DNA of 64,000 nucleotides from Periconia sp. R9002 (lineage: Eukaryota > Ascomycota > Dothideomycetes > Pleosporales > Periconiaceae), in contig JAMAHW010000012.1 of NCBI GenBank assembly GCA_023627715.1, forward strand, positions 124,001 to 188,000. Reading direction: 5' to 3'. Numbering within the stretch: the first letter of the stretch is position 1; each line of letters starts with the position of its first letter. A program made the position numbers and the translations under genes. This document shows positions 38,037 to 61,914 of this stretch, one piece after another. The notes under the pieces were generated by a model, which saw nothing but the letters and a program-made list of their open reading frames with translations, did no database searches and was not told the origin of the DNA.

Positions 38037-38760
38037 GTAATTAGACAGAGTTAACGAGGGCCGTACTCAACAATATGTGAGGAAGAATTGCATTCAAAAG
38101 TGTGCGGTAGGTTGTAGAGGGGCAAAGTTGCGTGATGGTTGTACTGGGAGAGGCAAATAAATGAAGGCGATCCGCGCGGTCAAGGCGGTGGACCACGCCT
38201 GGGCAAGGCAACCAAATTTGATTCGATAGCAGAGGGTATGACGTAAGAATTTTTCAAGCTTAGGCTAAAGCAATCGCCTTGAGAAGAAGCCAAGGTGATT
38301 GAGAAATGGGTGGTTATGCCGTAGCGCAAACCAACGAAGACAAATGCATATTGACAATTTCAATTCTGGCGTTCAAGCATTGAAAACTATATGCAAAGTA
38401 TTTCGGATACTCAGGTGACGTATGTGTTCGTGGTAGAGAGTTTGAGGTGTTTGACGCGGTCGGTCACGTGCGTGACATTCATACCGACTGAGCTTGTCAG
38501 GCAGGCAGACGTGGTACTTAGCGCGAAGGCTTGGCGTTGGCGGAGGCCCGTGCTCTCACTTCCTACAGTATAAGGTGAGTCTCTATCCCCAACCAGTTTT
38601 CTACCTGCCCACCACAACCTCCTCACCTGCATCAACCCGGATTCTTCGTCCGCAACCTTCCTCTTTTGATTACCTTCAATTATCCTCTTCTTTTCTGATC
38701 ATTCAAAAGCGCGAAGCCCCGGCTTTATTTTTTCTCATCATTTCATTAAGGCCGTGGCCT
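38037..38760. other. intergenic region before the tandem repeat
   Basis: The promoter side of the minus-strand coiled-coil gene. An ATG at about 38104 followed by a short open stretch may be an upstream exon or an upstream ORF. Nothing else was recognised. Confidence 0.35.
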
Positions 38761-39576
38761 AGAGTTCGCGTGGTTGACGGACTCGGAAGTGTCGACCTGA
38801 GGGTAACCTCGGCCTGTAACCCCTTCTTCCGTGGCGGAGAAGGTGGGGTTGCAGTTGCAACATGCCAACAGATATTCGAAAACTGCTCAGGTAGTTGTTC
38901 GTGATAGGCCGAAAGGTCCATGGCAGGTTTGGCGTAGCGACCTGTACTATAGCCAAAGGGGAACACTTTGTAAGACGAGACAAGATGTCCGCCAGAGTGA
39001 TGCAGCTCTGCCAACTACCCACGGCTGGTTAGCCCAGAGCTCGCGTGGTTAACGGGCTCGGAAGTGTCGACCTGAGGGTTATCCTCCGGCTTGTGCTCCT
39101 ATCTTCTGGTCTAAGAAGCAGGAGTACAGGTACCAGATGCCAACAGATATTTGAGAACTGCTTAGGCAGCTTTCATGACAGGCCGAAAGGTCCATGGCAG
39201 GTTTGGCGTAGAATCCAATTGGACCTATAGCCAAAGGACTCCACTTTGTAAGACGCGACAATTGTCCGCCAGAGCATATTGCTCTGCCAACTACCTAAGG
39301 CTGGTTAGCCTAGAGCTCGCGTGGTTGACGGGCTCGGAAGTGTGGACCTGAGGGTTATCCTCCGGCTTGTGCTCCTATCTTCTGGTTTTGGAAGTAGGAA
39401 TACAGGTACAAGATGCCAGCAGATATTCGACTACTGTTGTCAACACAGTGGATCGTGACAGGCCGAAAGGTCCATGGCAGGTTTGGCGTAGAATCCAAGG
39501 GATCTATAGCCAAAGGACGCACTTTGTAAGTCGAGACAAGTGTCCGCCAGAGCATATTGCTCTGCCAACTATCCCA
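38761..39576. repeat. three tandem copies of a 275-bp unit
   Basis: Units start at 38761, 39036 and 39312, each opening with AGAG(T/C)TCGCGTGGTT and CTCGGAAGTGT. The period is 275-276 bp. The most conserved part is CAGATATT followed about 30-40 bp later by GGCCGAAAGGTCCATGGCAG and GTTTGGCGTAG, and then GCCAAAGG and CACTTTGTAAG. Copies 2 and 3 are closer to each other than to copy 1 (shared GTGCTCCTATCTTCTGGT). Frames through the repeat are not shared among copies, so I treat it as non-coding. Confidence 0.85.
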
Positions 39577-40503: not shown

Positions 40504-42825
40504 ATGGAAATCGTGTCCTCTGTGAAAAGGACCGTCTTGTCTTACCTCAACCCACATTTGGACCCCGAGAAGAAGTTTCCTTCGAAAATACTACGATATG
40601 TGCCCGGAGAATGTACCTACTGCCGCAAGATCTTCTTTGTTATCGGGATACCAGTTTCCGACATTCATGAGTACCCGATGTTTCGTATCGGGTTCGTCGA
40701 CGATGTCATGGCCTCAGACTGCAAACAGCACACGACGTTCTTTGCAAACTATGCGGAGGAGCTAGCGCTCGATGAAAAGGGTGGCGAGATTCTTATGAAA
40801 GTGTATCGCAATACATATTCTTTCAACTTCTTCACCGAGAGATGCAGCACCGGGAAATGGCGACCGTACGTTCCCGTTCCTGGTGGGCAATACACGATCG
40901 GAACACCACAGCTGGACTTGCTTGGTGGAAGTGGCCTTGGAGTTGAGTTGGATCCGTCATGGATTCACGAGAAGACTATTTTGGGGTGGTACGAGGCTTG
41001 TCTAAAAGAGCATGGACATAAGTGCAATTCCCCGCCGTACCTCGCAATACTTCCTCCGGCCGAACCTCATTATTTCATCGATGTGGTCCAAAATTGCCTT
41101 GTACACGCTCGAAAAGGTGCAGCCTACGCTGCATTGAGCTACGTGTGGGGTCAGACGGAGATGTTGAAAGCTACCAAGGCTACTGTATCTCGCTTGCAAG
41201 AACCTGCAGTATTAGCGGATCCAGCTACTCTGCGAAGCCTTCCGAAAACAGTACTTCATGCAATGTATCTAACCACCAAGTTGAAACTCAGATATCTATG
41301 GGTGGATGCGCTATGCATTGTTCAAGATGATGAAAATATGTTCAAGACTCACTTACCGCAAATGGGTTCGATATACGGAAATGCGAGCATAGTCATCACA
41401 GGTATGGACGGCGTGGATGCTGGACATGGACTCCGTGGATTGAAGGGTGCACCCCAGGCAAGTGCTCGGCAGCTTCACCGGTCTCCCATTGCGTTTGGCA
41501 GTGAGCGTTTTGTCACCCGGTATCCGATGGGCGATTATTGTGCCATCGAGGATCCTTCCGCAAAATCGTACAATGCACGAGGCTGGACATTCCAGGAACA
41601 TTTTTTCTCCCGTCGCAGCATATGCTTTGAGAACGATAGTGTTTGGTTTCGATGTTGTTGTACAGCGAGGTATGAGGATCATAGGGAACCTGAACGACCA
41701 CATATCGACCGCGACTGGCTTCTAGACGTTGGGTACCCTTCCAACACCGCTCTGACTAGGGTCATATATGACTTTAACTCCAGACATCTCACTTTCCCTC
41801 AAGATTGTCTATCAGCATTTTCAGGCGTCACTGCCTGCTACACCAAAATATATACAGGCGGCTTCATATGCGGATTGCCCGAGATGTTCCTAGATGCGAT
41901 GCTACTGTGGCAACCGAAAGGTGACTTGACGCGACGAGTGCCTGTAGCCAACAGGAACAAGCCCTCGGCCCAAATCACGGATATCTGCCTTCCTAGCTGG
42001 TCTTGGGTAGGGTGGCAAGGCTTGCTCGATTTCAGTGCGTGGGATTGTGCCAATAATTTTGTAAATTCATGCAGTGGGCTAATAGCGCAAAGTTGTTGCG
42101 AGATCAGAACCGGGACTCAATGGCAAGCATCCAGAGATCCACATGGAGCTAATCGACGGCACGTTGATTCATTTTGGCTTGACTGGTGTGCGCGATACAA
42201 AGATCCCGACGCGAGGTTACCAGATGGCTGGACTAAAAGATTGAAACGTAAAAACGAGCAATCCACCTGTCCGATGATACCAGAAGGCCATGGGAAGTAT
42301 ATCTACGAATTGAAAAAGTCCAAACGTGCCGATTTCTGGTATCCACTGCCTATGGGCAATCCGAATGGTGTTCCGAAAGCGGATGCGGATCTACCGTACC
42401 TATTTGGAAAAGTCGCCACAGCGCATATATATACCTTCGGTGGGGTGTTCACGGTCGAAAAATATGACAACCGGAAAGCTTGTATTTATCTGGGCAATGA
42501 AAACGGAGAGTGGATCGGTATGTTGAGGCTACATTCGTTGGACTACTTCGAGAGGAAAGGTATGGATCCTGCCAGGGAAAGGGTTCCGGTGCAGCTGATT
42601 TGCATATCCACTGGCTTCGTACCGAATGGCTCGGATTTCGGGTACGACTACGTTGACGGATATCACCTAAAAGAAAAACCGGTGGACGGGGAAGACTATG
42701 AGTTTGCTAATGTATTGTGGATTTCTTGGGATGGAGGCGTGGCGAGAAGGGAGGCACTTGGAAGAGTAGAGATGAAGAGATGGGCTGCATTGCAGCCCGA
42801 GCATCTAGACATAGTTCTAGGTTAA
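40504..42825 (+). CDS. HET-domain protein
   Basis: A single-exon protein of 773 residues with a heterokaryon-incompatibility (HET) domain at about residues 203-385. The three conserved blocks are visible: AYAALSYVWGQTE, YLWVDALCIVQDD with the following MGSIYGNASIVITGMDG, and ARGWTFQEHFFSRRSICFE. HET domains are fungal cell-death modules that trigger compartment death after non-self recognition, and structural work relates them to TIR domains. The N-terminal 200 residues contain a cysteine pair (CTYCRKIFF) but no NACHT or WD repeats. The C-terminal half has the W-x-W-x-G-W block (CLPSWSWVGWQG) common in stand-alone HET proteins. No frameshift or internal stop is seen, so it appears intact. The closest flanking neighbour upstream is a tandem repeat. 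Confidence 0.92.
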   Translation: MEIVSSVKRTVLSYLNPHLDPEKKFPSKILRYVPGECTYCRKIFFVIGIPVSDIHEYPMFRIGFVDDVMASDCKQHTTFFANYAEELALDEKGGEILMKVYRNTYSFNFFTERCSTGKWRPYVPVPGGQYTIGTPQLDLLGGSGLGVELDPSWIHEKTILGWYEACLKEHGHKCNSPPYLAILPPAEPHYFIDVVQNCLVHARKGAAYAALSYVWGQTEMLKATKATVSRLQEPAVLADPATLRSLPKTVLHAMYLTTKLKLRYLWVDALCIVQDDENMFKTHLPQMGSIYGNASIVITGMDGVDAGHGLRGLKGAPQASARQLHRSPIAFGSERFVTRYPMGDYCAIEDPSAKSYNARGWTFQEHFFSRRSICFENDSVWFRCCCTARYEDHREPERPHIDRDWLLDVGYPSNTALTRVIYDFNSRHLTFPQDCLSAFSGVTACYTKIYTGGFICGLPEMFLDAMLLWQPKGDLTRRVPVANRNKPSAQITDICLPSWSWVGWQGLLDFSAWDCANNFVNSCSGLIAQSCCEIRTGTQWQASRDPHGANRRHVDSFWLDWCARYKDPDARLPDGWTKRLKRKNEQSTCPMIPEGHGKYIYELKKSKRADFWYPLPMGNPNGVPKADADLPYLFGKVATAHIYTFGGVFTVEKYDNRKACIYLGNENGEWIGMLRLHSLDYFERKGMDPARERVPVQLICISTGFVPNGSDFGYDYVDGYHLKEKPVDGEDYEFANVLWISWDGGVARREALGRVEMKRWAALQPEHLDIVLG

Positions 42826-43931: not shown

Positions 43932-45306
43932 ATGGCGAGCAATGAATGGGAGGGCGACTTTGACCCAATGGCGGATCCTGAAGAGCAAAAGCACCTTCTT
44001 TCTGTCCTAGACTCTTTCCGGTACACCCTTTACCATGCCAATGCCACAATTCAATCGTACCACAGCACACTAATGCAGCTGAAGTTCGTACCGCCGACTC
44101 GCCCATTTCAATGCCACCCATACTAGACGGCAAGCCTTTTATTCACTTCCATCAGAGCACTGGATGCTTCTATCAAAGCCACCTTTCTCGATTCTGGACA
44201 GTCTCATCAAGCTCGACGACCTCATTGATTCCAACGCGGTTCTTGCGGAAGCCATCTTCGTGACCGGTTTCCAAGCCTTCATAGCCCCTGGACTCGATAG
44301 CGAATGGGTCTCGAAGATAATACCCGCCGATGATGCACGCGATGAGTTTCACGTCTATTCAACAATTATGGACCATCTCAATGTCACGAGCACGCAGAAC
44401 GACCTAGAGAAAGCACGGAGTTGTGTGAATCAATTCTATCGTGAATGGAGTGCCGAGGGTTCTGTTGAACGCGATAAATGTTTCTCTCCCATTATCTCTC
44501 AGCTCGAGTCTGAATTCACGAAACGCAAATCCGCAAATCCATCCGAGCAGAAATCCGATATCAAAGTCCTCATTCCCGGCGCCGGACTCGGACGTCTCGT
44601 TTTTGACATCTGCCGTGTCGGCTTTTCAGTCGAAGGCAACGAGATCTCTTACCACGAGCTCATGGCCTCGTCACTCATCCTCAACCATGTCGAGAAACCG
44701 GGTCAATTTACCATTGCACCGTTTGCATTAAACTCATCCAACCATCTTTCGCGGGCAGACCAATTCCGCACCTACGCGGTCCCAGATATACATCCCGGCA
44801 CCGAACTCTCCAAAATCAAAGACTCCACGCCGCCCTACGAGCGCATGAGCATGGCTAGTGGCGATTTTTGCGTATTGTATACGCAGCCTGGCGCTAGTGC
44901 TACGTTTGATGTTGTAGCGACTGTGTTCTTCATCGACACAGCACCGAATCTTATCCGATATATAGAAGCAGTGCATAACTGTCTCAAACCAGGCGGACTC
45001 TGGATTAATCTTGGGCCATTACTGTGGCATCACGCGTCCCGGCCACCCCCGTCCGAGAAACGCCAAGACGGCGACACTGGGATGAAAGATGGGAACGAGA
45101 ACGCACGTGCGCATGTTGACACTGGGATTGCCGATCCGGGCTCAGTTGAACTGACTGATGATGAGGTGGTCGCGCTAGTAAAGCATCTCGGGTTCGAAAT
45201 TGAGATTCATGAGCCGGGAAGCGTGGAGACGGGTTACATTACGAATACGAAAAGCATGTTGCAGAGCACTTACCGAGCCTCGTTCTGGATGGCTCGGAAG
45301 AAATAG
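43932..45306 (+). CDS. carnosine N-methyltransferase-like (N2227 family)
   Basis: A SAM-dependent methyltransferase of the carnosine N-methyltransferase (CARNMT1/N2227) family; in yeast and animals it methylates a histidine-containing dipeptide or protein histidines. Exons 43932-44020 and 44085-45306 join in phase 2, giving 436 residues. The join restores the family block DSFRSYRRLAHFNATHTRR, followed by QAFYSLPSEHWMLL, which strongly supports this splice. The SAM-binding motif is KVLIPGAGLGRLVFDICRVG (about residues 183-202), followed by EGNEISYHELMASSLILNH. DVVATVFFIDTAPN is the motif IV region and GGLWINLGPLLWH is the family's late block. No signal peptide or membrane span is present. The true substrate in fungi has not been established as far as I know. 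Confidence 0.9.
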
Positions 45307-45869
45307 AATCTTGGAGCCGCGAAATATATGTCGCGTGTCATCTTGACTGCGTAGCAAATTTTCAGTATTTTTTCTACAACTGCGAAATGACCACTGGGGG
45401 GGTATTCATAAAAAAAAGAAATCCATACTGTGTCTAAAGGAATCAATAATCAAGAGGAGTCGATGAACGTATACAAGATGAATGGAGTCATCAAAAACAA
45501 ATTGTTGGTCTGCTAAACATACAATTGGTGCGACCGACCACTGTGGACAATTCATCTCGATTTCCCTCGCAACCACTACTACAGAGGTTCGTCTCGAATA
45601 TCGTCAAAAACGTGCTTCTACTTTGTAAAGTGTTAAAAAGGTCCACAACAAATGTCTTGTGCTCGAAACTTATCCTGTCTCTGATGTTCAATAATGCTTA
45701 TCATTCAACGCCGCTATTTTCCAGCACTGGCCACCGGGGTCGCCCTCAGATTTTCCCAAGATCTGACTACACTTTGGTTAAAGAATGGCCAACCCAAAAG
45801 GCGAGAAATAAAATGATAGAACGTACTGCATGCATCTTGCTCGGTTCTTTCTATCTTCGTATTTGACCA
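45307..45869. other. 3' flank of the methyltransferase gene
   Basis: About 560 bp with no supported gene. The frame at 45525-45866 has no domain. The right end merges into the first recognisable unit of the array. Confidence 0.35.
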
Positions 45870-48800
45870 ATGCTATGATGACGATAGCGATGATGATGCT
45901 GATGATCATCACTACCACCATTTCAATTCAAAAATGAAATCATGAATGAATCTTTGGAGCAAAGACACCCACGCCGACCACACCATTCATCTCGTCCGTG
46001 AATACTTAAATTTCTTGCGCATAAAACGCAAGTGGAGAGCAAAGTATGGAAGAAAAGGAGGAGGTACGGCATCTTTATATACTTTTTTCCTGTCTTACAG
46101 GAACCCATGTGGTGACTACCATCAACTGAGCCTTCCTGACCTTGATCAATGCCAACTCTGTACCTCTTCACGTGCTTCTATAATGATACGTGTCGTAATA
46201 ATAATAATGACGATGCTCATCATCATTACCTTCTCTAGTTACTATTCATTTCGAAAGCGCGAGATGCACATCATGGGCGAAAAAAACACGCCACCTCCAA
46301 ACATGGCGAAATCAATCTTCAAGTTTTTATTACCACACCCAGTCCTTCGCTCAGCCACCAACACTGCCATAGAAGGAAGACAGACGGAGAGGCCTGAAAA
46401 GAAAGATTTATATAGTTTGTCTGATGGTCCTAGCGTGTCCACCCTTGTACCTCTGGGAAATGCTGATCTTGGTTATCACTATCGTTTCTAAAATCAAAAC
46501 GGTAGAAACATGAACGGTCAATCGCATTTCGTACGCACACAAGATTATGTAGTATGCGCGGACGATTTTCGGATTGGGGGTTTTTGTCTGTGATTCCACG
46601 GACTAACGTACGAAAGAATGAGGAAGAGCAAGAATTAAAACTATATGTACTTGTCCTGAAACAGTGAATTCGGCACAATGTTTTTCAAATTAGTGATGTA
46701 CTTCAATTTAGTGACACAGGTCATCATTGTCACCGCTATTCGAAGCGACTCAAGTTCCAAAAACTAGCTACATGATGACAAAACCGAACCCCGAGAACAC
46801 ATGATTGTTTCGATTTTTCCGTTTAACATCTCCCGGATATCGCAAAGTCTAGTTTAGCAAAAAGAAAGCGTAGGGACAGCAACAATGATCGATTTATATA
46901 TCTCAGCCCCAGACCTGATTAGTCATATTTCCCACACCCTGCATGTCTATTTATATTTTACGTCTTAATTGAACGTGAGGTGATGATGAAACAGGCCATC
47001 AATCGTTATCGAACCCATCACTGAAGGCGCAGTATGCACAGACATTACCACCCAAAAACTAGTGTCGCATGAAGAAGTGGGGCCTGAATGCACAAACAAC
47101 CATGGAGTCGCGCAAGAAAATTTTCAACTTAGTATCCAGGTTTGAGAAAGAAAGAAAAAGAACAAGTAGAGGGGGCTGTGATTGTAGGACTGTACAAAGT
47201 GCTACCAGCTACATTGTTATTGTCCTTACGGCATACTGATGAGGCGAATCATTATTGTCATCATCATTCCAATTGTCACCTCAAACCAGTGCTTCAAAAT
47301 CTAAAGAAACCGCCTCTCAAATTACGGTTGTTATAGCTAGATTCGAAATGCACTCACAGCATGAAAGACATGTTAGGGTCGTTTTAATCCGCTCCTCCCT
47401 TTCTTTGAAACTTGTATGGGGAATAAAGAGAGAAAGACGAGGAATTAAGAATTTATATGTACTCATTTCCCGGTCTACACGGGCCACACAAATCAATCCG
47501 TTATTCCCAACGTACTCTCCGTCTATCTACCGTTGACAAAGTTCATCATCGCGTTCAATCCCAAACAAATCACATGTCATGACAAGCCCAGTCACCAACA
47601 GACACACATCGTTGAATATTTTTCTGATTTTCAGTCACATCTCCTCCTCCTCCAGCAAAGATTATTGCAAGGAAAAGACATCATGTCAGAAAAGAAAGAA
47701 TATATATACGTTTCTTACTAAGCTACTCCTGCCTACCTACTACGAAGCGATGATAAATATTACCACCACCGAAACAATCTAAAATTCACATTACATGTGC
47801 GAACCGTAGCCCACACACATTCTTTCTTGCCTTTTGGATTTTTCAGTTCTGAGGCACCCCTGGTACAGTACAAGGTAGTAAAGAAAGAAAGAGGAAAGAA
47901 AAGAAAGGCGTTCTTATACCTACTCTCCCGCTCTTACTAGCTCACCCTATCGTCCTCCTCTTTACCTGTCAAGTTTTGATTTGATGAGTATCATCATCAT
48001 TATCATCGCCATCGCTTACATTAGTACATCACCTAAAAACGCCTTACATGTATTCAACAAATCCCCCAGAAGCACGTCATAGCATTTTCTCACGTTCGAT
48101 TCAGTTATGAATATTCCTTCTCTCGTCTTTTAGAACAACGCAGTGTACAGAAGAAGGGGAGATACGAATGGCAGATTCTATATACATATCCTTCTTACTA
48201 ACTTATGTGCCAAGAGATGCTATCAAGCTTTGCTGCTTAGCAAAGGTTGATAATAATCATCACCACATCATTAGTTCTACGACGCAAAATTGAGCTTTCC
48301 CGGTGCTGATAGAACACACCTCTCTAGCTACACAAAATACTCCACACAGCACATGTTCGGGTTTGACTCTAGTTTTAATCCTTCCTCCTTAACTCTCATC
48401 TGGTTCTGCGCAATAACGTGTGCGGTAAGGAAGAAGAAGGAAGCACAGCTGAAGGAAGTGTTTATATACCCACCTTAGTTACTGCTACTAATCACTTCGC
48501 CTCCCTCCTTCTTACCTATCTAGTGTGTTTTTAATGCATATAGCTATCATTACTACTATCATCATCATCACCTTGCCTTTCTAAAAACCAAGCCAAAATA
48601 TATGTTATACAACTGTTACCTGCCACACCCATAACAAACATCGACTGTGCTCTGTCTGTCTTTTAGCCCAAACTTAGTTTCCCTTCTACCAGATATTGTG
48701 CAGAGAAGAAGGACAGGAGGCAAAGGTGCGGGTTTTATACATACATAGGTGTTCTAAGCATTCTTACTAATCCACATACCTGTGTGGAGCCTCACTGCCG

Positions 48801-51800
48801 GCTTTCAAAATACACGTTAATGCTAATCGTCATCATTGTTACTACCACCAATCCAATTTCAAACCCAGGTTGGATCTGAATATTCATAACACGCCTAGCC
48901 AATCACACACGCCACACATATTGCTCGAAACGATTCCTTTTCACCTACCAATGTCTCACCTACCAATGTCTCACCTACGCGATTCTCTAGCAGTGTAAAC
49001 AAGACTTCAGAATATGGGGAACAGGAAGAAGGCTGGGTTAAATACTTCTCTCCTTACTAATGCGTTGTCACCCCAGCGGCGATGCTCATCATCACTAACC
49101 ACTTCGCTGACTAGTATCATCATCCTAAAATCTAATTACATATACAGAGTGCACAAACGCACACATTTCATTGCTTGAGTTTGACTAGAATTTGGAGTTC
49201 CTCCTTCTCGAAACCGGTATCTTCTGTGAATGAAAAACTCCTCACAGCATTCAAAAATAGTCGTTTATATACACAACCTGTTTACCATGACTAAACTTAG
49301 CAGCCTGTCCTTTCAACGTTACGCAGTGCTGATGTAGAATAACGTTATCATCGCCTATTATTCTTTCGAAACATCAAAATCATGTACCAGAGAAAGCACG
49401 CTATACAAATCACACACACGAATGTTTTCAGGTGGCATTTGCTACTACGAAGTCCCCCACTTCCCAGGACTTCCGGAAGTAGTGCAATCAAAAAAGAAAG
49501 GAAGGAAGGAAGAAAGGAAGGCAGACGATTACCTACTCGTTGTTGCGACAGACCTTGATTGTAGAAATATCATTGCCATCAACGTCAGTATTTAGGACCA
49601 TCCTATTGCTCGAAAATATAACTGAAATATACGTAGCCATCAAATCAAAACGAGAGCCCACAACACATGTCATCGAAGAACGTCTCTTTGATTCAATTCT
49701 GCCCTCACCCACCATGCTCCAAATTGGTCAAGGAAAGGAAGAATAGAGGATGATTATATACCCTAATCATCCTAATTTTTGTAATCTCGCTCCACACCTT
49801 TTTCCCCTTCTGCCTACCAAGCGCTGCAACTCAGCGGCAACGAATATGATTATCACCACCTCATCACCTCTACCCATATATTCTGCTTGCTGGATTCTTC
49901 CCAAATCACCTTACATGTTGTCAAACCCAAACTGCTCTGTACCCACACCTACTCACAAACACTATTTGGTGTTCTATCCGGTGTTTTTCTAACAACATCA
50001 CCCCTAACCAGCCAGGCATGCAAGCACATAGAACACCTACGGTTAACAATTTACTTGACGTGAGTATTGTTTGCCTGGCGTTTGTTGATGAGTATTACCA
50101 CCACCACCATGTCCCGTCAATCTGAACCCGCCTAAAACCTACGAGGTTAGATTCATGATATCGCACAACACGCCCAGCCACACATGTCCTTCCTAATTAT
50201 CTTCTTTTCGTTCCCCCTCCACACTGGAGATTAAATAGCAAGGAATAAAAAGAAGGAGTAAAGCAAAAAAAGATGTGAAGCAGGTTTATATACCCGTCTT
50301 TCAAACTCTTACTAAGCTACCCAGCGTCAATGCTGATACAATACATCACCACCACGTAGAACCTAAAATCAAACTTACATGAGCTGACGAACGTACAAAC
50401 AAACACATGATTCTCAGGCCTATCTCTTTTTCCAGCCCGTCTACGCAACCTGATGTAAAGAAGGAGATAAAAAGAGAAGAAAGAGACGGACAACTGTGCT
50501 CACTAATTTACATACGTACCTCTCTTCTTCCTGAATTCTACCGCTCTTTGATAATACTACGCATCATCACTATCTACCACGAGTGCCCCTATCGAAAATC
50601 TTGAACCTACTCATATAAGCCGATCGCAAACCACCCAGCCAGCAAATCACTCATCTTTTGATTCCCATCATGTTTCTTTTGCCTCTACCCTACCCTTTCC
50701 CTATGCAATATACAAGAAGAGAAGAAAAGGGAGAAAAAATGGTCCTATATATCTCCAACTACTCATTAATAATCTACCCACGTAGCGTTCGTTGCCCAGA
50801 GCTCGTTGATGGATTCAATTACCACCATCACCTTATTACCTCATCACGTAGCCTTTCGAAAACCCATTAACATACCAACAAACCACCCGGCTCTCATGCC
50901 TCCATTGCCTCGATGGTTTTCAGTCCCTCTCTTCCCCATCACCTCTTTTCACTCCATATGACATGGAGAAAGAAAGGAGAAAGTGAGAAATGCAGTCGAA
51001 CTTATACCTAGTCCTTACTTTGCTACTAATCTACCTTTTCCTTCTTTCTGCGCTTTTCCTCATGTTCTACAAATAGCGATGATGAATCTCATCACCCCTC
51101 TCCCTCACTCCCCATATACTCCTCGAAAAATCCAAAAATCCATATCCAGCCCACATGAACTGACAAATACCACCAGCCAGCGAGCCAACCAGCCACACGC
51201 CATGCTCCTTTCCTACGCTGGTGTTTAGTACCTACCCCCCCCCCCTCTTGCTATGTAGTAAGAAGAAGCAACTAAACGAGAAGGAAGGGGGAGCATTTAT
51301 ACACAAATTGAGCTCTTACTAAGCTATTCACCGACGAGAAGTTTCATCATCACCACAGATTGAAAATCAAAAACAAATTTGCATGATAGCACCTACGAAC
51401 AAACACACAAACAAACAGATCATCTCTTCGACCCATTGTTTTTTAATTCTCAGCTCCTACTTCTTTCCTTTCCCTCCGTATACATCTTACAAATAGGAAA
51501 AGAGAAAAGAGGAAGAACGAATAGAAGAGAAGAACAATATAAATATACCAATACTTCTGGCCTTACTAAGCTATACAGTATTGCTACGCACGATGATGAA
51601 TCTCATCATCATCAGCTAGAAATCACTGTTCGAAAATCCACCTTACATGAGCTTGCAAATACAGCTACTTCACATGAACCATATACACATGCGCTTAATC
51701 CAACCAAACACGCCCATGGGACAACTTTTTTTTCCAGTTTTTTTAACCCTTCCCTCTATATAGTGCAGTGCAGGGTAAAAAAGAAGAAGAAGGGAAAGAG

Positions 51801-54800
51801 GAAAAGAAGTGATATTTATACCCACACTAAAATTCAAAAATCCAAAATCCAATTCATATAAGTGATACGCAAACACACGGACACGCACGCCAACATCATC
51901 TGGAAAAACATCGTTTTTTGATTTTTTTCAAATCCCTCTCCTCTTTACTATCTGAAAATGTAGTGGAAGACAAAAGGAGAGAAAAAGAGAAGAATAAAAG
52001 GAGGATATTTGTACACACAAGTACAGCTAGTATGTTAACTAACCTAACATCTCCTTCTTACCTATCGAACGGTAACGATGAATTTCATCATTATCATAAA
52101 TACGTCAAATTAAATATACATGTTCTCACGTTTACTACGTACATGCCCACATATGCCTTTGAATTAGATAGCGTATTTTCCTCTCTCCTCCCCTCCGCAC
52201 TTAATGTAGTGTAACGAAGAAGAAGAAGCGAGAAGGGAGTAAAGAGAAGGTTTATATACCCCTCCCCTCGCACATATTAGTAATTCCCCTTCTCAATTAC
52301 TCGCGATGATGATGGAATTCATCACCACCACCACATTACCCATTTAAATTTGAAGCATTTTATGTTCTCACACACCTAGACACACGAACCATACACCACA
52401 ACGCACGTTTCCTCTCTATCTGGTTTGTGTTTTTAGAAGTACGTGTAATTGCTACCTCCGCGCACTGTGATGTAGTGTAAAGAAGGAGGAAGAGAGAAGA
52501 ACGAGAAGGAGGTCTATATACCCACACCCTTCCTTACCCCTCTCCCCCTCCCTCAATCTGCTACGTTAGTGGTGGTGGTGATGTATATGTATATACCTCC
52601 CTACATACAAGACATCAGTAGTGATAGTAGCGGTGGTGCTGACGAATTTCATTATCACTCTAATTACCTATAGAACTTCGAAAGTATTATTCCATGCACC
52701 ACACACCCACAACCCCACACATTCCACGCTTCTTCTGTACAGTTTTTTATACTCTCTCCCCCCTCCGCGCACGCAGTGTGAAGACGAAAAAGAAGAGGGG
52801 AAAAGGGGTATTTATACCCGCACGCCTGTGCTCACTAACTTATATGTATATACGTACGTACTACGAGACGTCGACGGCAATGATGCTCCTCATCACTACA
52901 TGTGTACCTATCTAAAATCGAAAGTATCATTCCATGTTCTCACACGCCCGCCCCCAGCCACATAGAGTTTGCCCTTATGGTTTTTCTAATTGTACCTACG
53001 ATAGCAACCTCGCACACTACGATGTGAAGAAGGGAAGAAAGGAGGAGAAAGATAGGAGTTTTTATGTCTTCCACCCAGCTCCTCTCAGTCTTACTAAACT
53101 ACTATGCCCTCCGCCTTGCCTACCTTCTCTATACTCCTTTATCTAACAGCGATGATGCTATTCATCACCACCACATTGCCCATCAAAATTCAAAAGTGAC
53201 ATTCCATGTTCTTACACAAACCTATACCGAGCCGCAAAAACCCACACATAGTAAAGGTAACTGTTTGTTTTTGTCCTCTCTCCTCCCTCTTAATTCCCTT
53301 CTATAAAGCAGTGTGAAGAAGAAGAAGAAAAAGGGAAAAAGGAGGAAATATTTATACCCACACTTTTACAATTACGAAACTAGCTACCTACTACGAGACG
53401 TCAACTAATAGTAGTGATAGTGGTGGTGGTGCAGTTCATCACTATCTACAACATCACCCATCAATTCAAAATCAAAAGTAGCATTCCATGTACTACGCAC
53501 ACCCGGCCACACATGCGGCTTCCTTTTTCCTATTATTTAGCTGTCTTCCCTTACGCGGTACAGTGCAGTGCAGCGTAAAGAAGAAGAAAAAGATAGAGAT
53601 ATTTATACCCGTACACCAGTGCTTACTAATATATGCCTATGCATAAATTAATACTATAAGACATTAATTAAGGTCTCGGTAGTGTTTGATGCTGATGCTG
53701 ATGCTACTCATCACCACCATCCACCACTACCTACCACATTACCAATCCATTTCAAAAATACCTTCAATGTTATTACTGGACTACAAACACACAAACACAC
53801 ATAAAACGAGTTTGTCCAGTATTTTCATCCTCTCTCCTCCCTCTCCTCCCTCTGCGCACTGCAATATAGTGTAAGGAAGAAAAGAGAAGAAAGGAAAGAG
53901 GGAGAAGAATAGGGGGGTTTACATATCCATACGCGTGTGCTTACTAACATCTAGTATATGTATACGTGTATACTACTACTACAAGTTGATAGTAGTGTTA
54001 TTGGTGGTGGTGGTGGAGCAACTCATCACCACCGTCATATTACCGATTCAGAATCGAAATCGAAGATACCTTCAGGTTTCAATTAAGCACACACACACGC
54101 CCAATCCCACACATGTTAGATCGATCGCCCAGGTTTTTATCCTCTCTCATCCCCCTCGTACAAAGCAGTGTGAAGAAGAAGAAAAGGAGTAAGAAAGAGA
54201 GATATTTATACCTGTAAGCGTGTGCTTAGCTAACGCATACACCCAGACAACCAAACACCACACCGCACATAGTCCTCGCGCTATTCCTATTCTAATTCTA
54301 TCAATATTCCTTCCCCTCCTCTAGAACCTGCGATGTAGTGTAACGAAATAAATGGAGAGAGGGAGAAGAATAGGGGGTTTTATATACCTGTACGTGTGTG
54401 CTTACTAACGTAGATGTATCCCTTCCTCCCTACTACGACACGTCAACGGTAGTGATGGTGGTGCTAATGGCGATGGGAATGGTAATGCTACTCATCACCA
54501 CCACTACCACCTATCACATTACCCATCGAAACCCAAATTCGAAAGGAATATTCCATGTTCTCACACACGTTCACACACACGCCCAATCTCACGCACCCAC
54601 ACCCACATCCGCATTGCCAAATTTTCATTCTTTTAGCTACCCTTTTCCTCCTGCAGTGCAGTACAGTGCGATATAAAGAAGAAGAAAATAGAAGAATAAA
54701 GGGAGAGTATTTATACCCGTACGCGTGTGCTTACTAACGTAGATGTGTATACGTTTCACAAGACGCTAGTAGCTGTCGTGATGGTGGCCGTGGTGTGAAT

Positions 54801-55890
54801 TATCATCACTACATTATCCATTAATCCAAATTCGAAGATTGCTTTCATATTTTTGCTCCCACTCAGCCACACACATGTGGTTGGTTTAGATGTTATTCTT
54901 ATCTTCTCCTCTACCTTATCCCTTCCTACAAAGCAGTGTAAAGAAGAAGAAGAAGTAAAACAAGGAAAAGAGAGGGTATTTATACCGTACCGTACAGTAC
55001 ACCTGTGCTTAACCAACGTATCCAAGGGTAGTGGCGGTGGTGGTAATGCTACTCATCACTACCACTACCACCACCACTACTACTATCTACCACATTACCA
55101 ATCCAAATTTAAAAACACCTTCTATGTTCTCACTCCTACTCACGCACACGCCCAATCCCACATCTTCTTGGACCGCACCCTTTTTTATCCCCCTCGTACA
55201 ATGTGGTGTAGTGTAAAGAAGAAAAAGAGGAAAAGAAGAAAGGAAGAGATATTTATACCCTATGCCTGTGCTTAATAACGTAGATATGTATAGGTTTTAC
55301 GAGACGCTAGTCGCTGTCGTGATAGTGGTGGTGGTAATAAATCTCATCACTACTATATTATCTATTATTCTAAATTCGAAAACACCTTCCATGTTGTTAC
55401 TCAACCACACACACACACACACACGCCCACACACATGAAACTTTACTGAGTACCATTTTTATCCTCTCCCCTTACCCCGTCCTACAAGGTAGTGTGAAGA
55501 AGAAGAAAGAGAGAGAAGGATAGGGGGGTATTTATACCCGCACGGTACGCGTGTGCTTACTAACCTAAATGTATATACCTCCCTACCAAGAGATACTGCC
55601 GGCAGTGATGACGGTACTCATCACCACCTTACCCATTAATTCGAAATTGAAAATACCTTCTATGTTACTCACACGCCCACACACACACACATAGGAATTT
55701 TTTCATTTTCCTTCGCCTCTTAATCTCGTCATATAAGGTAGCGTAAAGAAGAAAAAGAAAGGGAGCAAAAGAAGAAAGGAGGAGATATTTATACCTATAC
55801 GCTACACCTGCGCTTACTAACCTCTGATACTCCCTACAATAAGATGTAAACGGTAGTGATGGTGCTTGTCATCGTCACTCTCATCAAGGA
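45870..55890. repeat. 10-kb degenerate tandem array of about 35 units, ~265 bp each
   Basis: No gene is recognised in this stretch, but the same set of short boxes recurs in the same order about 35 times. In plus-strand order the boxes are as follows. (1) AGTGTAAAGAAGAAG-like, then a purine run. (2) A TATA-like box, TATTTATACC or TTTATATACC. (3) CTTACTAA, often in GTGCTTACTAACGTAGATG. (4) An inverted repeat of GTGATGGTGG and CTCATCACCACC type. (5) ATTACC, then AATTCGAAAAYACCTTCCATG or, in left units, TTACATG. (6) CACACACGCCCAACC-like, (7) a pyrimidine tract TTTTTATCCTCTCTCC. Box 2 lies at about 46074, 46407, 46893, 47452, 47701, 47914, 48178, 48461, 48734, 49264, 49754, 50285, 50745, 51003, 51295, 51540, 51814, 52008, 52251, 52513, 52811, 53059, 53351, 53602, 53918, 54204, 54378, 54709, 54979, 55252, 55531 and 55788. 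Spacing is mostly 240-300 bp. Open frames are short and not shared between units. Confidence 0.85.
55252..55530. promoter_or_regulatory. representative well-preserved array unit
   Basis: This unit (279 bp) illustrates the pattern. TATTTATACC at 55250-55259 reads as GGTATAAATA, a perfect TATA box, on the minus strand. GTGCTTAATAACGTAGATATG follows at about 55267. GATAGTGGTGGTGG (55321) and CTCATCACTAC (55343) form the imperfect inverted repeat. AAATTCGAAAACACCTTCCATG is split around 55372-55393, then a CA repeat and CACGCCC. TTTTTATCCTCTCCCC is at about 55457 and AGTGTGAAGAAGAAGAAAG at about 55491, ahead of the next TATA-like box. Confidence 0.6.
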
Positions 55891-56245
55891 ACCAATACCA
55901 AAACTTCGATCAAAAAAAGACACTTCCTAGTTGAATCCAAAAGAGAGATGTACAAGTTCATGTACCCATCACTCCATACACCCACCCTTACACTCTCACT
56001 CCAACAAACCCACGATCTCCAAAGGGACCAAAAAACGTTCATGATATGTATAATATGTATACTAAAATCTATACTATAAAATAAATATATATGACATAAA
56101 AAACAAAAACATGTATACGCTCAATGGATCGACGGATGATGGATGTATGATGTGGTATCTCGTGTAACAAACTCCGCCCCTTAAAAAAAAACTCCCTCCC
56201 TTCTTCCACCACCCACGAACAAAAGGAAGAAAGAAAAAAAAATCA
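55891..56245. other. right flank of the array
   Basis: About 355 bp between the last array unit and the stop codon of the minus-strand RhoGEF gene. AT-rich; it probably holds that gene's 3' untranslated region. No further array unit is recognisable. Confidence 0.4.
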
Positions 56246-59200
56246 CTAATACCTCATCTTCCCCAACAACCCAAAGCACCACGCACAATCCCTCTCGCTC
56301 CTCAACTGCACCATGAAAACCCTCGCGCGCGCACCCATGACACCCCCCGTATCAGCCGGCACACCGCCCACGAGATCTTCCCACACGCTGACCGCGATGC
56401 CCAACCGCGCGACACGCTCAAAGCAGGACTCGCCGAGCGTCACGTCGAGCAGCGTCTCGTTGTTCTTCTTGGAGGTGATGACGATGCGTTTTTCCTGCGC
56501 GGGGTCGCCGCGGGCGGCGCCGGGGGAGCCTTGGCCGTTGCGCGAGCCGCCGGGGGGCGTGGTGGAGGAGGCGTCGGGAAGCATGATGGTGATGCGCGCG
56601 GAACCCATGTCGCGCCATTTCTTGAGGGACTCGCGCTCGTAGAGGCGGCATTTGGTGTTGACGATGCCTGCGGATGCTGCGATGACGCCGTTGGGCGTGC
56701 TGGTCCCTGAGCCGGACCCGCTGGAGCCCGTGTCGAAGCTGTTGGCGGCGCTGCGGGAGCCGAGTGTTGAGTCGCGGATGCTGAAGCGCCCGTTCTTGGT
56801 GAAGCTGAAGCGGGCCATGGCGCTGCGGAGCGCGGAGTTCATGGTGCCGACGGAGGATTCGGTAGCGGCAGATATGGAGGCGGCGCGCGTGCTGGTCTTG
56901 CGGTAGGAGCTGCGACGGCCGAGGGTGCCTCCGAACCAGCCCCCGGAGTTGCTATTGCTGGTGCGCGCGGCGTTTTGGCGGTCCATGACCTCGGCCCAGC
57001 TGCTTTGGCCATACGGCCCGCGCGCGTTCTGGAGCGCAATATACGTGGGGTTGTTGATGCGGGCGTAATTGATCATGGCATACAGCTGGTCGCACTCGGT
57101 GGGTGTGCGGCTTCGAAGCATGCTGTAGTTGCCGGCCTTGACGCGCGACTCAGCGGTTGGGGGCGAGCGGATCTCGATGTCGAGACCAGTGGATTTGCGG
57201 AGCGGCACCAGGGGTGTGAGCTCGAGCACGATGAGGGGAGCTCGTCCGTCGGGCGGGAGGATCTCGTCGCCGTCTGTCATGATCTGCTTAGGGCTGGAAC
57301 TGCTCATCTCAAACACTTGGATTTTTCCGGGCGTGACCAGAATGTTCAATTCAGAGTGGTGTAGGTCTTTCCATTGCCCGGTTTCATTGTACCACGTCTT
57401 AACGAAGGCAATGGATTGCGAAGCTTTGCTCGAGTTCTTGGGCACCGCTCGGTATGGGGTGTTGGAAGCCGACTGAGAGGGTGTAATGGAAGCATTGCCA
57501 GCAGGAAGCGTGTAGACGGATGCAGGAGGCGACACCTTGGGAAGAGAGCGTATTTGTCCGAGAGGCATCAATGGTGTTGGCACATCATCGTCAAGCTCGT
57601 CCTCGGATGAGTCAGAGGTGATGGAATCTTCATCTTCGGAAACCTCTGGCTCGCTTTCGCTAGACGATTCCGAGCAGGTAGACGGTTCGTATTCGTGCTT
57701 GAGAGGTGAAGACGAGCGCCGTTTAGCCTGCAGACCTGAGCCTGTGGGTGTGAACACTGGAGTTTTGGAGCCCTTCAAGGTAACTGGAGTGGCAGGACTG
57801 GGTGAGCGGTGTTCTGGAACTGGCGGAGGCACATCATCATCGTCCTCCTGGATAGGCTCGATCTGGCGCTCCGCGAATTTTGGCGGGGCGGACGCAGGGG
57901 GTTCGGGGTCGTCGGTCTTCACAGGAGTAGTGGGCTGGCTCGACTTGCGCTGCCTGGGAATGGTTGGCATATCCATGCTGGGGACGGATGAGGCGCGCCG
58001 GTGTGCTTGCGGCCTGGAGGGCGGTTCGTAGTCATCTTCAATGGACATGGTATCCTCGTCCGACTCGTCTGAATAGTCCACCTCAGAGGAGTTGGGTAGC
58101 CAGACGCTGTAACCCTTGCCGGAAACCACAGACGATGAATTGATGGAGCTGGTCGACTGAGGGCGTTGTTTCCGGCTGCGTGAAGATTGTTTTCTAGGGG
58201 GCTTGGGTTCTTCATCAGCCGGATCATCCAACACGATCTGCCTCGACGGGCGAGATGATGTTGGGGAAGGCGCAGGTCTCGACATTCGCCTGGCACGAGT
58301 CCGTTTGAGAGATATTGGGGAGCCAGTGCCAGGTTGCTCCATGGCTTCATTGAAGCTGCGCGGAGTGCGCTCCAGATCTTCTCCAGGCCGGCTTTTCCTC
58401 AGCGGGGAGGCAGAGAAGGAATGAGCTGCGTCAAGCGGAGACGGTGGAGATGATGGCCTTCCGACTTGGGAAGGTTCCGTACTGGGTGGAGTAATTGGCG
58501 ATACGCTGCGGGTCTGGGATAGCCTGTCGGGGGTTTCGAAGCTCCACCTCTTTGAAGACGATATATTGGCTTGCTCTCCAATGGGAATCTCGACTTGGTG
58601 GGGACTAGGAGTGCGGCTCTTATGCGGAGGAGTGGAGCCGGTGGCGGCGGATACCAAAGAGGAAGAAGCATGGCTGCTCGCTGCCCGTGGCGCCTTCTTC
58701 AATGTCAGTTCACGTTTGAGTTCTGTGATCTGCGGCGGGATTGGATGGAGGCCCAGCATCTGCACCCAGTCGAATCCGACTTGTTCATCATCAATCGTCA
58801 GAGACATGACTTCACGCCATTCACTTCCATCGCCGTGGTTGCCGCGTATCATGACAACAATTTCACCTTTCTGGTCTCCGTTGCGAGCAGATATGCGGCT
58901 TTGCTGAATTGGAGGGAGAAGGAGCCAGCGTCCAGATTTGTCCACTTCACATATTAACAAGTCCCCACCAGGGCTACTACCCGCTGTGTTGTCGCGGATG
59001 AGCAGCTCCACGCCACAATTGAGTTCCTGTCCACTGGAATGGTAGAGATGCATGTCGAAGTGATCTCTTGCCCGCACGCAACGGCTTGGATCGATGCGAA
59101 CGCCAGCGAGAGGCGCCAGACTCCTCGGGTCGCGAGCGCGAGTGGGATCTATCTTTGCGGCGGCCTCATCTTCAAGTCTCGCATGTTCGTCGTTGGATCG

Positions 59201-61914
59201 TTTCCTCGCAAACGTGACCAACTCCTGGAAGGCAGTGGACATTTTCTCTGCGCGGTCAGAAGGCTTAACGTGATGGATCCCCTGTTATAATTAGCACGAT
59301 ACTATTACCATTGCATTAAAGAAGTACACACCTTGAGAGTCTTGGAAAGATACTTCAAGCGCACAAGGGGTCGCTTCAACATGTAAGCGACATCCACCCG
59401 CTCCCCATCGCCATTAACCACATAGCCTTCGGCATTGCGTGGCAGACCCTCGTCCCAGGGCGCGCCATCATCGGGCCCCTTGACTACCTTTGCTGGGGTA
59501 AAAGGATCCTCATCCGCGGGCGCAAGGCTAACGACTACGTCTTGGAAGCCGAGCCGCCACGACTTGATATAGTCGGAGTATACCCGTTGTGCGCTCTGAG
59601 CCCATGACAAGAATGCATCTGCATCATCCTTGGGAACGCGCTTGTGCAGGGTTTTTAGACGCTCTAGTGAGACGCCCATGTCCACTATAGGTTTCGTGAC
59701 AGCAGACGGGTCGGAATTAACGGAACGATTGAACAGGTCGACAGCGACTGAAGAGTCAGTCTTTGATAAAACGACACTTAGAAGCACAGGAATCACGCCG
59801 TCCACAAGAGTGCGGAGCTCTCGCATATATTTGCTCTCATCAGTAGCAAGTTCCCTCATGACATCACCGATTGTCGCGGTAGCCAAGCGGCTGCGGTTTG
59901 TGCGAATGCTGCGAGCAGACACAATACTCCTGGCACCAGCCTTAGGCATGGACAGCACCGATATCAGATCGGCATGGCTAGCGAGTCTCCGCCTTGTACT
60001 CCTCCGGCTGACAATTGTCGATGTCTCTAGCTGGGATCCGAGTTGCGAAGCTGGCGCTCTTGGTGTATTGTGCTCATCCACGACGGTTTCTCCTGCCTCT
60101 GAGATGGTTGTTTCTGAGGGAGGAGCAAGCTGGGTCTTGGTGAAGGTGTCGACCGATACAATGGTGGAGAGTTTCCTGCCAGTGGTGGGAAACATGCGGC
60201 GTATAGTTGGGCTTTCAAACGGTGCCATCAGCTGGTCCTTGTCTACTTCTGACAATGCACTGGAGTCGACAGAGGAGGTCGGGGCTGACGAGGCTACTTC
60301 ACTGCTATTTTCCGAATCAAGACGAGAGTGGAACGACATGGCGCGTTCTTTGGTTGGAGAATGTTGGGTGCGCTTAGCACCACGGCGCTTCAACGTTGGA
60401 GTTGGCGTGTCTCGCTCGACGGCGGAGACGTCATCGACTGATTTTGTAGGTGTTGCAAGCGTAGGAACATTGTCCAAGTCCAATGGTGAACTGATCTTTG
60501 CGGGCGGACTTTGTCTCTTCCGCCGTCTTTTGCTCTCACTGGTGGGCTCTGGGACCTCATCCACCACCTTTTCCTTGGAGTCGCTGGACAAGCTCACATC
60601 AGAGCGGTTCTGGGTAGGCTGCAGTTCCAATGTAGAAACAGAATCCTTTGATTTGCGCCTGCGGCTGGAGTGTGAAGCAGCGAGGGGATCGGGTGTGGTT
60701 TGGAGCCAGGCTTCGAGGCGGCTGCCAAACACCTGTGGAGGGGTGGCGGGGGCAACTGGATCGAGAGATCGCGGAGGTGGTGCCTTTTCCTCCTTTTCTA
60801 GTGACCTTCTCGACCTTCGCCGGCTGGAAACGGCCGATTCCCGCTTTTCGTCTTTCGGTGAGGGGTCCCGTGAATTATCATGTGAAACATCACTGGATTC
60901 GTGTCTCCTGCTCCTTCTCCGACTCCTCCTCGAATCTTCTTTTTTCTGTAAGTCCACCAAACTCGGCTCATCATACTCTACTGTGATCACATTAGTTGGA
61001 TCCTCGCTCAAAGAAGTCCGCGATTTATGTAGGGATGCGGGTTTCGTGATCGACACGTCATCGGTCGAAAGCGAGCCCCGAGGGGATGTTTGGGCGCGTC
61101 GACGGCGCACGCGCACCAGTTCCGTCTTTTCCTTTTCTGGTGAGGCTGGTGGTGAGGTTTGTCCTTCATCCGCGCTCTTGGTGTCCTTCTCGCCAGCAGA
61201 TCCGCGGCTCAAGGGTCGCGTATCAGCGCCATCCGCCCCCGAGCTCCTGGGTCGCGATAGGCGGCGCTTCCTCTCGCTGCGCGTCCTACCAGTCGTCCGT
61301 TTTGGTGTTATCTTGGGTTTGGGTAATACGGGAGCAGCTGCTTCTGCCGGCTCGGCAGTATCCTTTTCCTTCTCTTTCTCTTTCTCCTTGGGGTCGGAAT
61401 TCTGGGCGCGGCGGACAACGGGTCGCACCCAGGCGGTCGGGACGGGTTTTGGTGAGGTTCTTGTTGCATTCTTCGGTGGAGACTTTTTGGTGCGCCAGTG
61501 GGAGTCGCTGACGACGCGCTTCTTGGGGGCAGTAGCAGTGTGAACTTCGTCGTCGAGCTTGTTGGCGGGCGGCGGCTGCTTCTTTGCGCTTTTGGGCTGA
61601 GGACTGGCGGCAGCGGTGGGTGTCTTGTCCGCGTCGAGGGGTTTAGATTTCGGGGTGGTGGGAGCGGCGGGGGTCGAAGTAGAGGAAGAGGGGATGGGAG
61701 CTGGTGTCGGGGGCGTGGGTGTGGGAGTCGATGTTTTTGGTGTTCGTGTTGTTGTTATGACTGGCGGCGGCGGCGGGCTGGCTGGGGACTCGACAGCAGC
61801 AGCGGGCCCACCATCGGGAGCGGCATCGAGCTCCTGCTGCCATTTTCTGATTTTGTCCTTGACGTTGGCAGGGCGGTCGATACCAATGGCCTTGCCGAAT
61901 TCATTTCCCTTCAT
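56246..61914 (-). CDS. large RhoGEF (DH) domain protein
   Basis: Two long frames belong to one gene. Exon 1 is 61914-59332 and exon 2 is 59281-56246, joined in phase 0 through a 50-bp GTGTGT...ACAG intron; the product is 1872 residues. Residues 1-650 are disordered, rich in Ser, Arg, Pro and Lys. The DH fold starts near residue 660 (IGDVMRELATDESKYMREL, then VDGVIPVLLSVVLS) and runs through the splice junction, LKYLSKTLK-GIHHVKPSDR. A PH-like region with HFDMHLYHSSGQELNCGVEL and a second disordered Ser/Pro-rich stretch follow. The C-terminal 150 residues (CRLYERESLKKWRDMGSARI onward) look like a second PH/Ran-binding-like fold. DH domains exchange GDP for GTP on Rho-type GTPases at the membrane or polarity sites. 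The target GTPase is unknown. Confidence 0.85.

What the first reader, a model, noticed from the sequence alone, without database searches (positions are those of the whole stretch)
45870..55890. Ten-kilobase array of about 35 ordered, degenerate ~265-bp units with no gene
The same six or seven boxes recur in fixed order across 10 kb, yet frames are short and not shared. This is not a simple satellite, since identity between distant units is low while box order and spacing are kept. Selection for, or a shared origin of, a regulatory or non-coding RNA module is the best explanation I can offer. It is also not the AT-rich decay expected of RIP-mutated transposons. I know of no described family that fits.
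Basis: partly seen in the sequence, partly recalled or inferred. Interest (0 to 1): 0.92.

Follow-up and report, generated by a model that had tools for sequence, protein, structure and literature searches.

The report
Fungal arrays of repeated promoter-like units
A fungal chromosome carries a 10-kb gene-free stretch made of about 38 degenerate copies of a promoter-like module, and the core of that module turns up at many other places in the same genome, which suggests an undescribed family of repeat-built non-coding RNA genes.

Summary
The array is real: about 38 complete units over 45.82-55.96 kb, median spacing 261 bp, no gene found, no Rfam or Pfam family, nearly invisible to Tandem Repeats Finder. 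It is not unique: its core block was found at 19 loci on 12 contigs of the same 42.9-Mb genome (a Pleosporales fungus; nearest named relative by one protein Periconia macrospinosa), in tandem at 15 and single at 4. On the minus strand the core reads as a fungal RNA polymerase II promoter: in some units an AP-1/Yap1-like site, then a TATA box, a pyrimidine tract, a TTTACAC start-like box about 46 bp on, then A-rich sequence. Complementary boxes show no covariation, so an RNA-hairpin reading is not supported. Some single-block loci are followed by ~60-bp modules. Best explanation: a dispersed family of repeat-built non-coding loci with promoter-bearing units, transcribed leftwards in the window. 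Transcription is inferred, not shown. The main rival is a decaying satellite of shared origin without present function. Four literature searches for such a family, of which only the top listings were seen, showed none. Nearest in form are hsr-omega-type repeat lncRNAs.

The parts
45824..55960 (-). whole array, about 38 complete units, median spacing 261 bp; '-' is the promoter-like (presumed transcribed) strand, units were aligned on '+'
51296..55960 (-). better-kept part of the array, towards the PH-domain gene (identity to consensus 0.66-0.76)
45824..51295 (-). more degenerate part (identity to consensus 0.53-0.68)
55531..55787 (-). one unit as aligned on '+'; on '-' it holds the transcribed spacer of the promoter at 55793 and the upstream boxes of the promoter at 55536
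55786..55793 (-). TATAAATA box of the promoter nearest the PH-domain gene (TATTTATA on +)
55670..55691 (-). GTGTG-rich stretch (CACACA on +), 102-123 bp downstream of the TATA box at 55793
55640..55646 (.). TTCGAAA box, about 150 bp downstream of the TATA box at 55793
55604..55627 (.). GTGATGA/CATCACC dyad-like box, 68-91 bp upstream of the TATA box at 55536; arms do not co-vary across units
55557..55563 (-). TTAGTAA (TTACTAA on +), AP-1/Yap1-type site upstream of the TATA box at 55536
55529..55536 (-). TATAAATA box (TATTTATA on +)
55499..55528 (-). pyrimidine tract (purine tract on +) after that TATA box
55492..55498 (-). TTCACAC start-like box (TTTACAC in the consensus)
56246..59242 (-). PH-domain protein gene whose 3' end faces the array; same direction as the promoter-like strand
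44164..45306 (+). carnosine N-methyltransferase gene, convergent, at the degenerate end

Best explanation
The array is one member of a dispersed family of repeat-built non-coding loci in this fungus. Each well-kept unit carries an RNA polymerase II promoter on the minus strand (in some units an AP-1/Yap1-like site, then TATA box, pyrimidine tract, TTTACAC start, A-rich leader) followed by a short transcribed spacer with GTGTG, CATG and TTCGA words. Transcription would start at one or many units and run leftwards, away from the PH-domain gene and towards the convergent methyltransferase gene, giving repeat-containing non-coding RNA. At some other loci one promoter precedes runs of ~60-bp modules, so the promoter and the tandem modules look like separable parts of one kind of gene. 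Shown: periodicity, a genome-wide family of the core block, shared box order, strand-specific promoter anatomy. Inferred: that it is transcribed, that a bZIP factor controls some members, and that the RNA or the act of transcription matters (for example as a repeat scaffold for RNA-binding proteins, or as interference between neighbouring genes).
For: Family: core block at 19 loci on 12 contigs, tandem at 15; 208 of 210 block hits share the orientation of their locus. Longer composite patterns gave 31 matches (overlapping ones counted separately) and 0 reversed-control matches, all in these loci or, at C49:91.8-93.3k, just beside one. Outside the arrays of the window and L003-L006 the block model gave only two weak hits, 13.2 and 9.6 bits. 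Promoter strand: TATAWAWR on the strand opposite the purine tract in 162 of 210 hits, on the other strand in 10 of 210; shuffles 2.9 and 7.1; the commonest forms are TATAAATA 77, TATATAAA 52, TATATAAG 16. TATA to TTTACAC median 46 bp, 5-95% 40-54, n=33. At 20-39 bp after TATA, C+T 0.90; AAAAA peaks at +60 to +99; TTAGTMA within 45 bp upstream of TATA in 38 of 162 anchored units, shuffles 1.0; the window gives 18 of these 162 units, 8 with the site. TATA plus pyrimidine tract is a working core in the mould promoter xylP, where replacing either cut activity to 8% and 22% (PMC9703631, passages seen); TTACTAA, TTAGTCA and TGACTAA are Yap1 sites (PMC6545440, passages seen). Constraint: per-column conservation correlates between 8 separately aligned arrays (6-14 units each), rho 0.06 to 0.38, p<0.05 in 26 of 28 pairs. 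Module loci: one promoter block followed by T-run/A-run dyads mostly 56-67 bp apart at C106 and 47-86 bp apart at C21.
Against: No RNA data could be seen. The block model was built on TATA-containing stretches from C12, C60, C1 and C45, so TATA in hits is partly by construction; strand, form and spacing are what informs. Of about 38 window units only 30 gave a block hit and 18 a TATA-anchored unit. The AP-1-like site is missing from many loci (0 of 10 units at C22, 0 of 14 in one C45 cluster, 0 of 13 in one C49 cluster). Decline of block score away from the promoter-upstream end is significant at C12, C3a and C60a (rho -0.83, -0.72, -0.54), borderline at C22 (p 0.055) and not seen at the other 7 of 11 arrays. 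G-over-C skew on the promoter strand is not general (C49b -0.14, C1c -0.06, five others within 0.01 of zero). Most gene neighbours are convergent, so the array's direction relative to genes says little. The dyad spacing at module loci was found with a loose word and no control.
Confidence: 0.55

Rival explanations
1. A dispersed degenerate satellite: arrays grew locally from copies of one ancestral unit that happened to contain a promoter, and are now decaying without function.
For: Mean unit identity is 0.50-0.53 and hardly depends on separation (0.529 at one unit, 0.503 at 30), so there is no sign of recent turnover; the left part of the window array is clearly more decayed. Away from the core, ungapped matching between units is near the random 0.259 (mostly 0.25-0.30), though indels make that test weak.
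Against: Under uniform decay the same columns should not stay conserved in different arrays, yet 26 of 28 array pairs correlate at p<0.05 (part of this comes from the TATA core by which units were chosen). The TATA box varies mostly inside the TATA consensus.
Confidence: 0.27
2. Tandem 3'-end (poly(A)/terminator) signals of the neighbouring gene: UAUAUA-like element, U/C-rich stretch and cleavage site repeated downstream of the PH-domain gene.
For: Arrays often lie downstream of a gene and read in its direction; yeast-type poly(A) signals are also TA-rich plus U-rich (recalled).
Against: An A-rich rather than U-rich stretch follows the site, and an AP-1-like box lies upstream in 38 of 162 units. 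The window array begins about 290 bp past the stop codon and runs 10 kb. Array C1b borders the upstream side of an RdRP ORF.
Confidence: 0.06
3. A structural RNA or C/D-snoRNA-like cluster, suggested by the GATGATG/CATCATC and Y/R complementary boxes and RUGAUGA-like words.
For: Complementary arms are visible in many units, although the repeat finder lists only two inverted pairs of 12 bp or more.
Against: Arm-swap test: own arms pair no better than swapped ones (window p=0.18 and 0.34; of 10 tests over five arrays one reaches p=0.03). No Rfam match reaches gathering score; no tRNA found in the window.
Confidence: 0.04
4. Chromosome-function DNA (centromere, replication origin or chromatin-anchor array) or remnants of a non-autonomous transposon.
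For: Long gene-free repeats are typical of such elements (recalled); many dispersed loci would suit origins or a mobile element.
Against: Lies between coding genes, four arrays on one contig, so not a centromere; no Pfam match in the 4 array ORFs tested. Terminal repeats and target duplications were not tested, and no transposon library was on hand.
Confidence: 0.08

Closest known systems
Drosophila hsr-omega lncRNA (280-bp tandem repeats over ~5-15 kb; PMC9865238, passages seen; its stress induction is recalled)
   Same: Non-coding, tandem units of about 265-280 bp over about 10 kb; a stress-factor-type site in some units here would match stress induction
   Different: One gene in Drosophila; here 19 or more loci, many with a promoter-like block in most units, and transcription not shown
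Satellites or macrosatellites with a promoter in each unit, and rDNA spacer-promoter repeats (recalled, not tested)
   Same: Tandem promoter-bearing units without a gene
   Different: Those are homogeneous or tied to rDNA; these are highly degenerate, dispersed and apparently Pol II type
Fungal Pol II core promoters with TATA box and pyrimidine tract, e.g. xylP (PMC9703631, passages seen)
   Same: TATA box, pyrimidine tract, then the start region, in this order; TATA-to-start-box spacing here about 46 bp, in xylP 34 bp to the most distal start
   Different: Here repeated up to dozens of times with no reading frame found behind them
Short dispersed satellite DNA (listing seen; otherwise recalled)
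   Same: Tandem, non-coding, several genomic sites
   Different: Unit identity about 0.5, below what Tandem Repeats Finder reports; ordered boxes shared between arrays

Membership tests
Fungal Pol II TATA promoter | TATAWAWR box on one strand at a fixed place | tested here: met
   162 of 210 block hits against 10 of 210 on the other strand; in the window 18 anchored units from 30 hits
Fungal Pol II TATA promoter | pyrimidine tract between TATA and start | tested here: met
   C+T 0.90 at +20 to +39 in 162 anchored units
Fungal Pol II TATA promoter | mapped capped 5' end | not testable with these tools
   no transcript data held
Repeat lncRNA (hsr-omega type) | tandem non-coding units over several kb | tested here: met
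Repeat lncRNA (hsr-omega type) | transcribed as RNA, stress-inducible | not testable with these tools
   only an AP-1/Yap1-like site in 38 of 162 units
Classical homogeneous satellite | high unit-to-unit identity | tested here: not met
   mean identity 0.50-0.53; only two short rows in Tandem Repeats Finder
Centromere array | one per chromosome in gene-poor DNA | tested here: not met
   four arrays on contig C1, Pfam-supported genes beside arrays
Structural RNA cluster (snoRNA, miRNA-like) | covarying stem or Rfam match | tested here: not met
Non-autonomous transposon (MITE, SINE, LTR) | terminal repeats, target duplication or coding relatives | tested here: inconclusive
   no Pfam match in 4 array ORFs; termini and target sites not tested
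RIP-mutated repeat | raised TpA/ApT with lowered (CpA+TpG)/(ApC+GpT), AT-rich | tested here: inconclusive
   array 0.96 and 1.05, left half 0.83 and 1.16, right half 1.10 and 0.95, left flank 0.71 and 1.18; TATA and CACA boxes confound it

The most novel reading that the evidence does not exclude
A previously undescribed class of fungal non-coding locus: up to dozens of Pol II promoters in tandem per site, 19 or more sites per genome sharing one promoter design, each unit firing a short capped RNA or together making a repeat RNA, possibly feeding an RNA-silencing or stress-scaffold pathway (one array lies beside an RNA-dependent RNA polymerase ORF).
Probability: 0.25. Interest if true: 0.88.

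Novelty: new variant of a known kind. Interest (0 to 1): 0.68.

Why it matters
If transcribed, these loci would be a sizeable, perhaps co-regulated family of non-coding genes in a fungus that ordinary annotation would miss, because the repeats are too degenerate for the repeat finder used here and no frames were found. They would let one ask which features of a repeat RNA locus are under selection, since many loci, each with its own tandem copies, give natural replicates within one genome.

Tried and rejected
RNA hairpins: complementary arms looked convincing by eye, but swapping arms between units gives equal pairing. Rfam: best hit mir-483 at E=0.0048 and 33.9 bits, below its gathering score of 60, in a low-complexity tract; dropped; no gathering hit in 10 further loci. 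tRNA: none. Centromere: dropped on position and copy number. 'Array direction is locked to the neighbouring gene': looked striking at first, but most gene pairs are convergent, so it says little; C60 lies between same-direction genes, C1b has an RdRP ORF reading away from it, C49b has no clear gene of the expected direction on its left. 'Young end next to the gene' holds at p<0.05 for 3 of 11 arrays. Serial recent duplication: not supported, identity does not fall with separation. Bacterial promoter/terminator scan of 200 bp: not relevant to a fungus. One viral contigs pattern scan: 0 hits.

Selection of loci: the first pattern gave 72 hits against 18 control hits. Of the 10 regions fetched, four (two at C60, C1, C45) hold arrays and six (C55, C2, C15 start, C57 start, C24, C6) do not; two of those six have one weak block match each, 9.9 and 12.6 bits. 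Of the 20 regions, picked from pattern hits and as neighbours of them, 18 have block hits at E<=0.05 (one of them, L014, a single weak one next to the C1:1159k locus) and two (L031, L032) have none. Two weak clusters seen with the unit profile (C1:1307k, mixed strands; C15:358k) are not counted as loci. Pattern-hit places that I could not fetch and did not count include C13, C15:401k, C21:264k, C31, C57:87k, C97 and C117. C8 (L033) looks like an ordinary gene promoter and has no block hit.
Full report
What was checked. Within 45800-55960, 7-mers are shared at 240-289 bp spacing 450 times, against 42.3 +/- 8.5 in 200 exact dinucleotide shuffles. A cyclic profile alignment divides it into 38 complete units and two cut ends, median spacing 261 bp, with identity to the consensus rising from about 0.55 at the left to 0.76 near the right end. 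Neighbour identity rises from 0.46 in the left third through 0.51 to 0.61 in the right third (rho 0.86 with position), but identity barely depends on how far apart two units are (0.529 at one unit, 0.503 at 30). So the array looks old and star-like, not a recent serial duplication. Tandem Repeats Finder lists only two short rows within it. No gene was found: the longest stop-to-stop frame is 181 codons, while the longest in 100 shuffles reaches 223, and the four array ORFs tested have no Pfam match. Rfam gives nothing at gathering score in 10 other loci and only sub-threshold matches here.

Surroundings. The array lies between a carnosine N-methyltransferase gene (+) and a PH-domain gene (-), both pointing at it. 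The methyltransferase is 90% identical to that of Periconia macrospinosa and 81% to that of P. digitata, so the genome, which is held without a name (42.9 Mb, 267 contigs), is probably a Periconia or a close relative; that rests on one protein.

It is a family. A pattern of two boxes, TTTATA and CTTACTAA, gave 72 hits in the whole genome against 18 for the reversed control. Fetched regions were searched with a profile of the window's units, with a sequence-only model of the 82-position core block and with the same block as a profile HMM. This places the core block at 19 loci on 12 contigs: C12 (the window), C1 (four), C3 (two), C15, C21, C22, C33, C45, C49 (two), C60 (three, one weak), C91 and C106. 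At 15 loci it is in tandem (2 to 35 block hits), at C21, C33, C91 and C106 it is single. The HMM found 210 block hits in the stretches scanned (C106 comes); 208 have the orientation of their locus, the two exceptions being single inverted hits at C45 and C49. Longer composite patterns gave 9, 8 and 14 matches, overlapping ones counted separately, with no control match; all lie in these loci or, at C49:91.8-93.3k, just beside one. Six of the ten regions and two of the twenty have no array, and several further pattern places could not be fetched. So 19 is a lower bound, and the loci were chosen by pattern hits.

What the unit is. On the strand opposite the purine tract (minus in the window) the order is: GATGA/TCATC box about 60-140 bp upstream, in some units TTAGTMA (AP-1/Yap1 type) mostly 20-40 bp upstream, TATA box, a tract with C+T 0.90, TTTACAC at about +46, AAAAA at +60 to +99, then GTGTG, CATG and TTCGA words. 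TATAWAWR is on that strand in 162 of 210 hits and on the other in 10 of 210. The block model was trained on such stretches, so presence alone is not independent; but the box changes between TATAAATA (77), TATATAAA (52) and TATATAAG (16) and mostly stays inside the TATA consensus, which the minus-strand reading explains better; 48 of 210 hits have no such box. Of 162 anchored units 38 carry TTAGTMA within 45 bp upstream, against 1.0 in shuffles, but several loci have none. The window itself gave 30 block hits for its 38 or so units, 18 of them anchored by a TATA box, 8 of those with TTAGTMA. In a mapped mould promoter, xylP, a TATA box followed by a pyrimidine tract lies before the start, and replacing either cut activity to 8% and 22% (PMC9703631, passages seen). 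TTACTAA, TGACTAA and TTAGTCA are Yap1 sites in yeast (PMC6545440, passages seen).

Is it constrained? Units of eight arrays (6 to 14 units each) were cut at TATA and aligned separately without the window profile; a ninth set, the left part of the window array, had too few units (4) and was dropped. In all 28 pairs the per-column conservation correlates positively, in 26 with p<0.05 (rho 0.06 to 0.38), and columns conserved in both arrays share the consensus base in 75-100% of cases, against 46-70% for columns poorly conserved in both. Shared descent alone explains shared letters, but not why the same columns resist decay in different arrays. All units used hold a TATA-like core by choice, so part of the correlation comes from that core.

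Module loci. At C106 a single promoter block is followed, in the promoter direction, by T-run/A-run dyads mostly 56-67 bp apart, and Tandem Repeats Finder lists a 59-bp period there; at C21 the dyads are mostly 47-86 bp apart. The dyad word was loose and had no control. C91 and C33 also have a single block with similar words nearby, less regular. At C1:1341-1347 kb seven promoter blocks have, on their downstream side, weak repeated matches to one part of the unit over about 3.5 kb. So promoter and transcribed module look like separable parts, and the window's unit looks like a promoter plus one or two modules.

What failed. The two complementary box pairs do not co-vary: own arms pair no better than arms from other units in 9 of 10 tests, one at p=0.03. 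The gradient seen in the window recurs at C3a and C60a, is borderline at C22 and is not seen in seven of 11 arrays. G-over-C skew on the promoter strand is positive in many but not all loci. The apparent link between array direction and gene direction is weak evidence because most neighbours are convergent, and C60, C1b and C49b do not fit simply. RIP-type indices are mixed.

Conclusion. Best reading: a dispersed family of promoter-bearing, repeat-built non-coding loci, transcribed by Pol II on the minus strand here; transcription and function are inferred. In form it resembles hsr-omega (280-bp repeats over about 5-15 kb; PMC9865238, passages seen) but differs in copy number and in having promoter-like blocks in many units. 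Four searches for a published description showed none, but only the top 10 to 15 rows of longer lists were seen and the library holds open-licence papers only; the other three searches were for promoter, Yap1 and hsr-omega background.

Noticed in passing
window 38757-39576: Three tandem copies of a 276-bp unit (neighbours 80-88% identical) with no visible likeness to the array; the own-genome search finds only these and a 59-bp piece on C27; no Rfam match, and no Pfam match in two ORFs there.
   Followed up: partly
L016:7268-8239 (C1:1357768 +): An RNA-dependent RNA polymerase ORF (PF05183, E 4e-46) lies beside array C1b, reading away from it.
   Followed up: partly
L006:1373-1434: A single inverted core block inside the C45 array.
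   Followed up: no
L023 (C49:115-121 kb): Units here carry an extra conserved CACGTG-like box upstream of TATA that is not seen in the consensus lines of the other seven arrays; C49 holds the longest array set found.
   Followed up: no
L033 (C8:643800-645800): One pattern hit looks like an ordinary gene promoter: TATATAAAG about 70 bp before an ATG whose frame, read by eye, starts like a secreted protein.
   Followed up: partly
window 40504-42825; 10709-14615: A HET-domain gene about 3 kb left of the array, and a hydantoinase A/B-type pair of genes further left.
   Followed up: no
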